Origin: a virus
DNA: 30,901 nucleotides
Virus record (IMG/VR): IMGVR_UViG_3300035698_006161
Coordinates: 1-30,901 of that record
Direction: 5' to 3' (one strand)
Positions 23,290 through 30,828 of this stretch are shown here, one piece after another. The notes below the pieces were generated by a model, which was given only the letters and a program-made list of their open reading frames with translations, was not told the origin of the DNA and searched no databases. Numbering within the stretch: position 1 is the stretch's first letter; each line of letters starts with the position of its first letter. The position numbers and the translations under genes were made by a program.

Positions 23290-24521
23290 CCTTTTTTCTC
23301 CTTGTTAATGTAGTTTAAAATTATTCCTAACATAATACATATATAAAACCTATGCGGTTCTAACTGCCACATAAAATGAATTAGGTTTCCAAAACATACT
23401 GCAAAAAAACAAACAACCGCAGCGAATCTGTACCTATCTATTATATTAATCATAAAAATTTTTTTAATCAACATAAAAAGTGAAAATATTAATAATGTAA
23501 ATCCTATGATTCCAGCAACACAAAAAAACTCTAAATATTCATTGTGTAATTCTATAAACCCCGACAAGGATAAATTTTTCTGTATAAATTCATAAGACCC
23601 GAATCCATATCCAGTTAAAAAGAAATTTTTTATTTCAGGGAACGGAGAATGAATTACTTGCATAAATGCATCTTTCCATACCCCAATCCTTCCTGAACTT
23701 TCATGCCTTATTATTTCCAAATATTTATATGGATGAAGTGAAAATAAATATATCATTAATCCTTTAATTGCATATATTACACATCTAACATATATCCCAC
23801 CTCGAACCATCAAATATAATAACACCACCACTCCAACCATTAAAAAAGCCGTTAAACTATTCGTCAAGAAAATTGCAAATAAACATATTGGTATCATCCA
23901 TATCTTTCTATTGCAAATTAAAAACGGAATCGTCAACGCTAAAAACGTACCAGCAAAAGTTGACTGACCAAGAAAACTCGTCAAGGTCGGATTAGTTTGT
24001 GATAGTACACTTTGATAATATATAACATTCTGCCATTGGTCTACCGCCATGAATTGAATAAGAATATATAATGAACATAAAAAACTTATCCAACAAATTA
24101 CTTCATACAGTTTCCGTAATGAATTTTTTCCCCAATCTATCGACGACACTATCATTACCATTATATAAAATAAAAATAAATCATTGAACTCTCGTGCTAT
24201 CCAAATTCCAGAAACATTTTCTCCAAGCAACTTAATATTATATTGAGGAGTTACCAGCATATGTATTGACAAATAAAATAATAATATAGACGCTGATTTA
24301 AAATTATTTCTTGGAATACCTTTACTATACAATCCATAAAACACAATCATACAACAAAACAAATGAGCCATGACTGCTTTTACTACTTGAATGTTTTCTA
24401 TTGGGCCTGCTATGATTGGTCTTAAATCGAGGTAAAATATAAATGGTAAGATTATTACTGCAGTAGTTATTATTGACTTTAAAACATCATCCTCTTTTTT
24501 CATCGTACGGATCATAGTCAT
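23286..24521 (-). CDS. O-antigen polymerase/ligase-like membrane protein (Wzy/WaaL type)
   Basis: The product is about 411 residues from the ATG at 24521 (AAGGA ten bases upstream; an in-frame GTG at 24554 and ATGs at 24515 and 24503 are other options). It has around ten membrane helices. Near residues 270-340 lies the signature of the O-antigen ligase/polymerase family. It comprises GRIGVWKDAFMQVIHSP, then FFLTGYGFGSYEFI, then IELHNEYLEFFCVAGIIG, with the conserved Arg, the G-x-G region and the H-N-x-Y-L motif. Such proteins join or transfer polysaccharide units on the periplasmic side. It overlaps the terminase end and is coupled to the exported gene. Phage homologues elsewhere alter host O-antigen and block superinfection. 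Confidence 0.8.
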   Translation of the reverse strand: MTMIRTMKKEDDVLKSIITTAVIILPFIFYLDLRPIIAGPIENIQVVKAVMAHLFCCMIVFYGLYSKGIPRNNFKSASILLFYLSIHMLVTPQYNIKLLGENVSGIWIAREFNDLFLFYIMVMIVSSIDWGKNSLRKLYEVICWISFLCSLYILIQFMAVDQWQNVIYYQSVLSQTNPTLTSFLGQSTFAGTFLALTIPFLICNRKIWMIPICLFAIFLTNSLTAFLMVGVVVLLYLMVRGGIYVRCVIYAIKGLMIYLFSLHPYKYLEIIRHESSGRIGVWKDAFMQVIHSPFPEIKNFFLTGYGFGSYEFIQKNLSLSGFIELHNEYLEFFCVAGIIGFTLLIFSLFMLIKKIFMINIIDRYRFAAVVCFFAVCFGNLIHFMWQLEPHRFYICIMLGIILNYINKEKKG

Positions 24522-25605
24522 GCAATATTTGTCCTTTCTTATAAGGGTCGCCACCTAATAAACTTTCAAGCGTAGCATTTCCCGACGGCATTTCTGGTAA
24601 AGCGAAAGTTAAAGCCAAACCATCTCCCTTGTTAGGAGAAAAACCTAATCTTTTTTTAACCTGTTCTTTTTCCTCTAACATAAACTTTCCCTTAACAAAT
24701 GTATATGTAGGAGTAGTAAGCTCTTTTATTAATCCTGAATCATTAGGTAATGCTCCTCCCTTCTTAACCCACTCTGCCATATTAAACCACATCTCAGACC
24801 GTTTATTCACATATCTTGAATCCATCGCCTTACCGTTAAAATGTACCTCAAACGGTGAATGACCTGCCTGTACCATTGCATCAACAGCTCCCGATGCAAA
24901 CCCACCTGTACCATCAAAAAATTCTAGCTCGCTTCCCCACTTTGCTTTTGCATACGCTACCCTAGCAGCCACATCTTCACTTCTTGGATTTCTCATCTCT
25001 ATAAATTTAAACGCTGCTAAACCCTGTCTTGGAAAAATACACCACGGATCACTTCCCCAACGAGCTGCATCAATTCCTAACCTCTTCTGTGCAAATGAAT
25101 ACTCATCTAATCTTAAATGACGTTTCATTGCAGCTTCAACCTCTGCAGGCCCTAGCAATGTATTAATTGAACTAGGTGGAAACTTCCCTAATATATATGA
25201 CATTACCCACGGATTGTCTATTCCATAATTATTTATTTGTTCTCTAGCCCAATCTATATCTATTCTTGGTGAACGCTTAGGATCATCAGGGTCGCCAGTT
25301 ATATTTATTACATGCCACTTATCTCTCAGCTTTGTTGCTGCTGCATACAACATTCCATCCAATGAAGTAGGATTACCAGCTTGTAAAATTTTGCCCCACT
25401 TACAACTCGTTAATCCCTGTTCGGCAGAACGAAGAACGGGAATAGGTATATCGCCAGACTCGTCTATTAAGTATAATACATAATCACTATGTAGCCCCGA
25501 TAAAGTTCTTCCCTGTTCCTCTTCGTCTGCCGACTTACTCCAACTTCTAGCTGACATAAACCATGTTTTATAATACTTGTAGCAAATATACGGGTCTTTG
25601 TCCAT
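24487..25605 (-). CDS. terL: Large terminase, C-terminal part (Walker B and nuclease), frame-shifted
   Basis: This frame carries the rest of the large terminase. It has TWFMSARSWSKSADEEEQGR, then Walker B YVLYLIDESGD (about residue 45), the coupling segment GLTSCKWGKILQAGNPTS, and a nuclease domain. Nuclease motifs are RLGIDAARWGSD (about 166-177), ELEFFDGTGGF and the C-terminal LGFSPNKGDGLALTFALPE. Acidic residues in these motifs would hold metal. Its ATG at 25605 lies inside the ATPase half, so this is not a natural start. The two halves are joined by a one-base change between about 25581 and 25565. The stop overlaps the O-antigen gene. Confidence 0.85.
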   Translation of the reverse strand: MDKDPYICYKYYKTWFMSARSWSKSADEEEQGRTLSGLHSDYVLYLIDESGDIPIPVLRSAEQGLTSCKWGKILQAGNPTSLDGMLYAAATKLRDKWHVINITGDPDDPKRSPRIDIDWAREQINNYGIDNPWVMSYILGKFPPSSINTLLGPAEVEAAMKRHLRLDEYSFAQKRLGIDAARWGSDPWCIFPRQGLAAFKFIEMRNPRSEDVAARVAYAKAKWGSELEFFDGTGGFASGAVDAMVQAGHSPFEVHFNGKAMDSRYVNKRSEMWFNMAEWVKKGGALPNDSGLIKELTTPTYTFVKGKFMLEEKEQVKKRLGFSPNKGDGLALTFALPEMPSGNATLESLLGGDPYKKGQILHDYDPYDEKRG

Positions 25606-25961
25606 GTAAACATAGACCTTAACATATCGCTTCTATTCATCCACTTAGCTATCTCTGGCCATAAATTATCTTTTAAATTATCCTGCGTGATTGATACTGC
25701 AGCTCCTTTAGGATGGTTTCCTTCGTCGGCATAACATGTAAGAAAATTTAATGCACACCATGCAAGCAATGCCGTTTTCCCTGGCCCTGCACACGCTTGC
25801 ATACTAATTCTCATCTTATTAGGATCTCTTGACCCAAACGCATCTAATACATCTTTCTGCCACGGATCAGGCTCAATGTTAAAATGGTCATAAACAAACT
25901 TACACGGATTAGAACGCCATGTCTGGATGTTCTGTGCCGCTTGCGATAACGGGTTGCTCAT
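25467..25961 (-). CDS. terL: Large terminase, N-terminal ATPase part, frame-shifted
   Basis: The 164-residue frame begins MSNPLSQAAQNIQTWRSNPC and has the adenine-binding region FNIEPDPWQKDVLDAF. The Walker A motif is ACAGPGKTALLAWCALNFL (about residues 56-74), and a later stretch reads SITQDNLKDNLWPEIAKWM. It keeps family sequence to FTWTKTRIFA, then departs (SIIKHGLCQLEV) because the true continuation is one base back (-1) in another frame. No canonical slippery heptamer is seen at the crossover. A single lost base (mutation or assembly error) is most likely. The start overlaps the small terminase by 53 bases. Confidence 0.85.
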   Translation of the reverse strand: MSNPLSQAAQNIQTWRSNPCKFVYDHFNIEPDPWQKDVLDAFGSRDPNKMRISMQACAGPGKTALLAWCALNFLTCYADEGNHPKGAAVSITQDNLKDNLWPEIAKWMNRSDMLRSMFTWTKTRIFATSIIKHGLCQLEVGVSRQTKRNREELYRGYIVIMYYT

Positions 25962-28696: not shown

Positions 28697-29792
28697 CCTT
28701 TCGCTGGAATTTGGTAGGGCATTCGGTGTGGGTTCCTATATACATTACATTCCGCAAAACCCCGACCCGTGCCTCTCGCCTGGGGAAAGCATGCTTAATG
28801 TTTTGAAAGCTCACAAGGCATACGTATGTATGGTATAAGTCATTGGCGGGGATAGCTTGTTGATAGATCAGACGGACATACCTGCTACCACACACCACAC
28901 CGGGACACGGCTGGACACAGCTGATCTGCTGATCTGCGTTGATTGATACGGTTGCTACTCTATATATCCAGAGCCAAACACAGCACACAAACACGGCACA
29001 CAAACACACGCACTACTATATTATCGTTTAACAGGATCAATCCTCAGGCACTAAAAAACGGGCAAACTTTGATAATTAGCAGATTATAGGCTCAGGGTCG
29101 TGAAATTGTAATAATTACGCTGTCCAGGCACTACTATAATTACTATAAACGTCAATATTTATTGTAACCTCAACAATACCAATAACTTACAAACTCTGTT
29201 TTGTCAACAATTACAGTTACTTAAACAGTATTGCCTACTATAAGGCTAACCTATTGAACCGCAACGACTTACAACATTTCTTATTAACTACTATAATCAC
29301 TCGGCAGTACCACCAAAAAACAGGGTCTCAGACTGCGGAGTTTCAGAGTTGTTTTTGGGCTCTGTTTGTAGCCTAAAAATACGACTCAATCTAATGGCCC
29401 ATATTGACACCATACACCTTCACCACCAAATACAGTAACTTTAATATATATAACTACTAGGTTGACATAAAATGATAAATTAAATTGTTATAAACGTAGT
29501 AATTGCACGTAGTTACTGATAGTAATAACTCGATAAAATAACGTTACTCGATTGACCAAACTAATAGGCAGACAAAACCAAAAAGAAATGTATCTTTATT
29601 TAACATAGCAAATACATAGTACTCGCTCCCCACGTAGGGGCAACACGTTTTGTCTATAACTACTATGTGGTAATATTTGATTAAAAACAATTGATTTTGA
29701 GTTAACAGCGACGAGGATTTAAAGTGCTGTAATAAATTGAATAGTGTCAATTGAATCTATGTATAATAATTGAGGAAACGCAATAAAAACGC
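28623..29792. other. Non-coding control hub of about 1.2 kb
   Basis: No reading frame in this stretch has a good ribosome binding site and a protein-like composition. Its first third (about 28700-29000) is less AT-rich than the genes. It holds two 12-base direct repeats (GCACACAAACAC at 28983-28994 and 28996-29007) and a doubled CTGATCTG near 28920-28937. The rest is AT-rich with recurring ACTACTATA motifs and a small CCCC-ACGTA-GGGG hairpin near 29629-29641. The two transcripts diverge from its edges. It could be an origin and control region. I see no tRNA or other RNA gene. Confidence 0.55.
29011..29667 (+). repeat. Dispersed ACTACTATA iteron-like motif
   Basis: Copies of ACTACTATA or near versions occur on one strand at 29012-29020, 29130-29140 (with a second ATTACTATAA directly after), 29235-29243, 29287-29296, 29453-29459 (shorter) and 29659-29667. 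The tight core and shared orientation recall iterons or a repeated regulator site. The spacing is irregular, so chance in AT-rich DNA cannot be fully excluded. Confidence 0.45.
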
Positions 29793-30419: not shown

Positions 30420-30592
30420 CATACTTCACTCTGGAACTGGAATTTGCCAACATAGGCGCACGAAAAACGATCTACTGCTGGCACGCACGGACAAAATACA
30501 AAAATGACATATTACAAGCATGGGGAAATACACCAACACAGGCAATTGATGATCTGTTTTTAGCTTGTGAGGAGGAAAAACACAATGTATAA
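30416..30592 (+). CDS. Small early protein (58 aa)
   Basis: This frame starts at ATG 30416, overlapping the previous stop (ATGA), and ends with TAA at 30590-30592, overlapping the next start. The product begins MTYFTLELEFANIGARKTIY, continues CWHARTKYKND, and ends acidic (LFLACEEEKHNV). The GAGGAGG used by the next gene lies inside its last codons. No family is recognised; overlap structure supports it. Confidence 0.6.
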   Translation: MTYFTLELEFANIGARKTIYCWHARTKYKNDILQAWGNTPTQAIDDLFLACEEEKHNV

Positions 30593-30758
30593 AACATATC
30601 ACCAATTAAAACGAATGAGCAAACAGGACGCATGGGATTACGGCGTAAAACATAACGAAATCAGTCAGAATTATCAAGAGATGGGATGTTGGTATTTTAC
30701 AAAAAGCGTTATGTTCCCCACACAGGTGGGGATGAACCGGATTTGCAGAGGTATCTAA
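30585..30758 (+). CDS. Early gene interrupted by a CRISPR repeat
   Basis: The ATG at 30585 has GAGGAGG upstream (an in-frame GTG at 30567 is less likely). The product starts MYKTYHQLKRMSKQDAWDYG and continues to CWYFTKSV at 30710, giving 42 residues that look like phage protein. From 30711 the frame runs into the CRISPR repeat and stops at 30758. The last 15 residues (MFPTQVGMNRICRGI) are thus repeat-encoded and not original. The true C-terminus is missing. Confidence 0.6.
   Translation: MYKTYHQLKRMSKQDAWDYGVKHNEISQNYQEMGCWYFTKSVMFPTQVGMNRICRGI
30711..30739 (+). CRISPR. Single type I-E CRISPR repeat, no array
   Basis: These 29 bases fit the type I-E repeat exactly in length and pattern. They have G-T-T then CCCC near the start, a six-pair stem CCCCAC-ACAG-GTGGGG with a four-base loop, and the ending GATGAACCG. 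No second copy lies 32 bases to either side. Bases 30676-30678 are AAG, the canonical type I-E PAM, and the 32 bases between it and the repeat are the exact length of a type I-E spacer. Confidence 0.85.
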
Positions 30759-30828
30759 ACAAGCGTCAATAGGAGATAAAGAAGCAAGGGCAAACGCTCA
30801 ACTAATAGCCTCAGCTCCTAATTTTTAA
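30740..30828 (+). CDS. C-terminal fragment of a phage protein (no start)
   Basis: Directly after the repeat an open frame reads FAEVSKQASIGDKEARANAQ and LIASAPNF, ending at TAA 30826-30828. The ANAQLIA-x-AP ending is common in small phage and prophage proteins, where it usually continues LLEAL or similar. There is no start codon or binding site because the left end is the CRISPR repeat. The first 32 bases would be the spacer if the repeat belonged to an array. Confidence 0.5.

What the first reader, a model, noticed from the sequence alone, without database searches (positions are those of the whole stretch)
30679..30771. Lone type I-E CRISPR repeat flanked on both sides by phage-like sequence, with an AAG PAM exactly 32 bases upstream
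Seen: one perfect 29-base type I-E-type repeat (30711-30739) inside a phage early gene, with no second copy. The 32 bases to its left (30679-30710) are phage coding sequence and are preceded by AAG (30676-30678), the canonical PAM of type I-E. The 32 bases to its right begin a second, different phage-like frame. Known: type I-E spacers are 32-33 bases and are taken next to AAG. Inference: the piece reads as spacer A - repeat - spacer B in which both spacers match phage DNA, so an assembler may have joined two phage loci through a host array. If so, the repeat links this phage to its host and marks two protospacers. The alternative is a real single repeat in a phage, which could disturb host crRNA processing or spacer acquisition.
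Basis: partly seen in the sequence, partly recalled or inferred. Interest (0 to 1): 0.9.

Follow-up and report, generated by a model that had tools for sequence, protein, structure and literature searches.

The report
Phage contig fused to CRISPR array
The lone CRISPR repeat at the end of this phage contig is almost certainly a sequencing or assembly join between the phage and a bacterium's immune memory array; it is not a phage gene feature, but it points to a Desulfobulbaceae-type bacterium as the host.

Summary
In detail: 30711-30739 is a perfect 29-base type I-E repeat, present once, with AAG exactly 32 bases upstream. The window is a whole 30,901-base linear IMG/VR record, so the repeat lies 162 bases from a contig end. 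Among 84,980 species genomes the same 29-mer occurs only in Desulfobulbaceae MAG127, 74 exact copies in an array with 32-base spacers next to a complete I-E cas operon. One MAG127 spacer matches window 30679-30710 at 21/32 bases, same strand and register, coding MGHWYLKETL against MGCWYFTKSV. This is the best of all spacer-versus-window peptide comparisons, so 30679-30710 is a real I-E protospacer with its AAG PAM. To the right lie a fragment of a common phage gene family (phrog_1273) and then an IS256-type transposase lacking its first ~10 codons. The record thus changes source three times in its last 190 bases. The rival, a real solitary repeat unit (RNA anti-CRISPR), fits poorly. Residual value: it links this epsilon15/phiV10-like podovirus to a Desulfobulbaceae-type I-E host, and warns catalogues of viral solitary repeats.

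The parts
30586..30710 (+). 5' part of a small phage early gene (MYKTYHQLKRMSKQDAWDYGVKHNEISQNYQEMGCWYFTKSV...), broken at 30710 where the repeat begins
   Evidence: no relatives in the collections searched
30676..30678 (+). AAG, the canonical type I-E PAM, in the phage sequence
   Evidence: local AAG frequency 0.5-1.2%
30679..30710 (+). protospacer / spacer A (32 nt); the last stretch of true phage sequence
   Evidence: 21/32 identity and same reading frame as MAG127 spacer 210912-210943; top-scoring spacer-window peptide pair of all compared
30711..30739 (+). type I-E CRISPR repeat, identical to the Desulfobulbaceae MAG127 repeat; host sequence
30740..30771 (+). putative spacer B (32 nt) of the host array
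   Evidence: position and length only; the following sequence is not a repeat; frame F-A-E-V-S-K-Q-A-S-I continues beyond it
30742..30818 (+). fragment of a second phage gene (FAEVSKQASIGDKEARANAQLIASAP, phrog_1273-like), a different locus from the left gene
   Evidence: phrog_1273 E 0.0011 and 0.0025; the motif ANAxLIAxAP also occurs in the viral contig L030
30822..30901 (+). IS256-family transposase fragment starting near codon 11, with no start codon and no IS end; third source
   Evidence: 72% identity over 25 aa to an annotated IS256 transposase, match begins at residue 11 of it; DNA similarity from 30819; homologues in order-level relatives of MAG127

Best explanation
The last ~190 bases of the record are a chimera, not a phage locus. 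A host array in the same sample holds repeat - spacer A - repeat - spacer B. Spacer A is a copy of the phage's own protospacer 30679-30710, which sits next to AAG. The 32-33 bases shared by phage and array let an assembler with a small k-mer, or a PCR/amplification template switch, step from the phage genome into the array at the end of spacer A. It ran through the repeat into spacer B, stepped out again into another phage-like locus, and ended in a transposase fragment. Shown: the repeat's identity to a complete Desulfobulbaceae I-E locus, the protospacer register, the PAM, and the truncated genes on both sides. Inferred: that the step was made by software or library preparation and not in the cell, and that B is a spacer.
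For: Exact 29-mer in only one of 84,980 species genomes, the MAG127 array, whose regular spacers are all 32 nt and which adjoins cas3e-cas8e-cas11e-cas7e-cas5e-cas6e-cas1e-cas2e. A MAG127 spacer aligns to 30679-30710 from first to last base: 21/32 identical, P about 1e-4 by shuffles and 8e-4 by other window positions. In the gene's frame it gives MGHWYLKETL/MGCWYFTKSV, BLOSUM62 28 against 13 for the next best of 444 spacer frames; the best spacer-window pair overall starts exactly at 30679. PAM AAG present where it is rare. The repeat lies 162 bases from the record's end. The left gene is cut at 30710 and the tail changes source again at about 30819 into codon ~11 of an IS256 transposase, which a real IS insertion would not give. 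Chimeric contigs are a described outcome of assembling CRISPR arrays from short reads (PMC6617893).
Against: No array with A and B adjacent was found; spacer A itself is not in MAG127 (best 21/32). No intact copy of the left gene was found to show how it continues. Reads are not available. A step over only 32-33 shared bases needs a small k-mer or a chimeric molecule, and two such steps are needed.
Confidence: 0.92

Rival explanations
1. A real solitary repeat unit (SRU) in the phage, transcribed as an RNA anti-CRISPR (Racr) that binds Cas6e/Cas7e of the host and blocks Cascade assembly.
For: It is a single repeat in a virus and folds into the repeat hairpin (-12.7 kcal/mol); SRUs occur in IMG/VR viruses of many types (PMC10651486).
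Against: It cuts an early gene instead of lying between genes downstream of a promoter; the nearest promoter-like matches on its strand are about 590 bases or more upstream and no more frequent than in shuffles. It is preceded by exactly one PAM + 32-nt protospacer whose homologue is a host spacer in the same register, which an SRU does not predict. It lies at a contig end beside a second unnatural junction. No acr-like neighbour was found.
Confidence: 0.03
2. A real recombination in the cell: the phage recombined with the host array through the 32-bp spacer A/protospacer identity and carried off repeat + spacer B, or the array bridged two phages.
For: Gives the same junctions as the chimera.
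Against: Needs two or three recent events within 190 bases at the very end of a contig, breaks a gene, and leaves the third junction to the transposase unexplained.
Confidence: 0.03
3. A viral mini-array (repeat with two spacers) carried by the phage for inter-phage competition.
For: Repeat and 32-base units of the right size.
Against: Only one repeat, no leader, no closing repeat on either side; the left 'spacer' is contiguous with its own phage gene and PAM, so it would target the phage itself.
Confidence: 0.01

Closest known systems
Type I-E CRISPR-Cas array of Desulfobulbaceae bacterium MAG127 (JAHLLM010000002.1, 206918-211741)
   Same: identical 29-nt repeat; 32-nt spacers; one spacer homologous to window 30679-30710 in the same register and orientation
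   Different: spacer A itself and spacer B are absent from it; the window holds one repeat, not an array, and no cas genes
Solitary repeat units / Racrs (Camara-Wilpert et al. 2023, PMC10651486)
   Same: one CRISPR repeat in a viral record, matching a plausible host's subtype
   Different: inside a gene, flanked by PAM + protospacer, at a contig end, beside further foreign joins
epsilon15/phiV10-like podoviruses (Enterobacter phages BUCT554 and Tyrion, Escherichia phage phiV10)
   Same: major head protein 52-53% identical over its full length; tail, internal virion, protease and head-tail adaptor families match PHROGs
   Different: low overall identity; the early region has no detectable relatives
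Short-read chimeric contigs caused by CRISPR arrays (PMC6617893)
   Same: wrong joins in and around repeat arrays
   Different: here the join runs between a phage contig and the array through a shared spacer/protospacer; I did not find this exact case described in the passages read

Membership tests
Type I-E CRISPR array (as source of the repeat) | repeat sequence identical to a repeat in a cas-linked I-E array | tested here: met
   complete I-E cas operon just upstream of that array
Type I-E CRISPR array (as source of the repeat) | at least two repeats separated by 32-33-nt spacers in the record | tested here: not met
   only one copy within 3 mismatches
Type I-E protospacer (30679-30710) | 32 nt following AAG, on the strand that gives spacer orientation | tested here: met
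Type I-E protospacer (30679-30710) | a spacer in an array with the same repeat corresponds to it | tested here: met
   homologous, not identical: 21/32, same register, same frame
Solitary repeat unit / Racr | intergenic, downstream of a promoter | tested here: not met
   truncates the ORF starting at 30586; no near promoter-like match on its strand
Solitary repeat unit / Racr | expressed as a small RNA and inhibits CRISPR interference | not testable with these tools
   needs RNA sequencing and an assay
Chimeric contig | abrupt change of source at shared short sequence, with truncated genes at the joins | tested here: met
   joins at 30710/30711 and about 30819
Chimeric contig | split read pairs or a coverage step at the join | not testable with these tools
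   reads are not held
epsilon15/phiV10-like podovirus | homologous capsid, head-tail adaptor and tail proteins | tested here: met

The most novel reading that the evidence does not exclude
The junction exists in real phage DNA: the phage recombined with its host's CRISPR array through spacer/protospacer identity and captured a repeat (and spacer B), which could act as an RNA anti-CRISPR or link two phage genomes.
Probability: 0.05. Interest if true: 0.7.

Novelty: not a real feature. Interest (0 to 1): 0.22.

Why it matters
As phage biology the lone repeat is very probably not real. As evidence it is useful: it ties an uncultivated epsilon15/phiV10-like podovirus to a Desulfobulbaceae-type I-E host, because the repeat is known only from one such genome and that genome's array carries a spacer against the same gene position in a related phage. 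It also shows how a viral-metagenome record can gain a false 'solitary repeat'. Surveys of viral solitary repeats that use IMG/VR should discard repeats that have a PAM one spacer length upstream and lie near a contig end.

Tried and rejected
Exact scans of viral contigs for the repeat, for parts of A and B, for the MAG127 spacer and for a degenerate pattern of the tail protein: no match. Protein searches for relatives of the truncated gene in viral contigs, phages, 146 order-level genomes and nine related viral records: none. Relatives of the neighbouring 78-aa ORF: none. Two short DNA matches to the tail in order-level relatives were read and judged chance. No repeat in 21 other family-level genomes. 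Other MAG127 spacers against the window: only A-rich or AT-rich matches without AAG, and none against the related viral contigs within 8 mismatches. A natural IS256 insertion as the cause of the tail was rejected: the transposase starts at about codon 11 with a stop just before it, with no IS end. Pfam found nothing for the early ORFs or tail fragments.

Full report
OBSERVATION. The window is a complete virus record of 30,901 bases, classed linear. At 30711-30739 it reads ATGTTCCCCACACAGGTGGGGATGAACCG, with AAG at 30676-30678 and exactly 32 bases between. There is no second copy within 3 mismatches, and chance would give 5e-15 exact copies. The repeat is 162 bases from the record's end.

SOURCE OF THE REPEAT. 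A scan of 84,980 bacterial and archaeal species genomes found the 29-mer in one only, Desulfobulbaceae bacterium MAG127. It has 76 repeats there (74 exact and two with one mismatch), with 74 regular spacers, all 32 nt. Just upstream lie cas3e, cas8e, cas11e, cas7e, cas5e, cas6e, cas1e and cas2e. None of 21 other genomes of that family carries the repeat core within 1 mismatch.

THE LEFT SIDE IS A PROTOSPACER. If 30679-30710 is a spacer of such a host, a related array could hold a related spacer. One MAG127 spacer (contig 210912-210943) matches it at 21 of 32 bases in the same orientation from first base to last. Shuffles of the sequence reach this in 1 of 10,000 cases; other positions of the window reach it in 8 of 10,000, most of them A-rich. 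In the frame of the phage gene, A reads MGCWYFTKSV and the spacer reads MGHWYLKETL: BLOSUM62 score 28, against 13 for the next best of 444 spacer frames. In the comparison of peptides in all frames of the window with the spacers (read in their forward frames), the best pair starts exactly at 30679. So the AAG and the 32-base length are not coincidence: the site is an I-E protospacer, targeted in a relative of this phage by a relative of its host.

THE RIGHT SIDE. The bases from 30742 to about 30818 encode FAEVSKQASIGDKEARANAQLIASAP, a fragment like phrog_1273 (E 0.0011; 0.0025). The related motif in viral contig L030 is ANASLIAAAPDLLEA. At 30819-30821 there is a stop in the transposase frame, and then FLTNYKSPEDLLGEGGILKSLNKALL, a piece of an IS256-family transposase (72% over 25 aa) that begins at residue 11 of the annotated protein. 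Similar transposases occur in 10 of 146 order-level relatives of MAG127. A real IS insertion would bring the IS end and the start codon, so this is a further unnatural join. Three sources besides the phage (array, second phage-like gene, transposase) therefore follow one another within 190 bases at a contig end.

THE PHAGE. The rest of the record is a podovirus: head-tail adaptor, protease, major head protein, tail protein, internal virion protein, endolysin and tail fibre families. The major head protein is 52-53% identical to those of epsilon15/phiV10-like phages. Its early genes have no relatives in the collections searched.

MECHANISM. Most likely the phage and a host array share spacer A (32 bases, plus the G that ends both the PAM and the repeat). 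A small-k assembly step, or a template switch in the library, left the phage there, ran through the repeat into spacer B, and left the array for another locus. That CRISPR arrays yield chimeric contigs from short reads is stated in the literature (PMC6617893). Which of the two artefacts it was cannot be told without reads.

RIVALS. Solitary repeat units that act as RNA anti-CRISPRs are real (PMC10651486), but that study's search was limited to intergenic regions and such units are often just downstream of a promoter. This one cuts a gene, has no near promoter-like match on its strand, and carries exactly the spacer geometry of an array join. A true recombination in the cell would look the same in sequence and is not excluded, but it needs several events at the very end of a contig.

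VERDICT. As a phage feature it is not real; as host evidence it is useful.

Noticed in passing
L031:16415-18631 (MAG127 contig 28, 203415-205631): The MAG127 I-E operon has a Fic-family gene (SoFic) and a PDC-S23 candidate defence gene inserted between cas6e and cas1e.
   Followed up: no
24487-25961, - strand: The terminase-like gene is split into two overlapping ORFs that match consecutive parts of phrog_5902, which suggests a frameshift or a sequence error.
   Followed up: no
29012-29667, + strand: ACTACTATA occurs exactly three times, plus three one-mismatch copies, all on the + strand of the non-coding stretch before the early genes; the only exact copies in the window. It could be an early promoter or binding motif.
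   Followed up: partly
MAG127 contig JAHLLM010000002.1, 211217-211468: The array is interrupted by 252 bases of non-repeat sequence between two perfect repeats near its far end.
   Followed up: no
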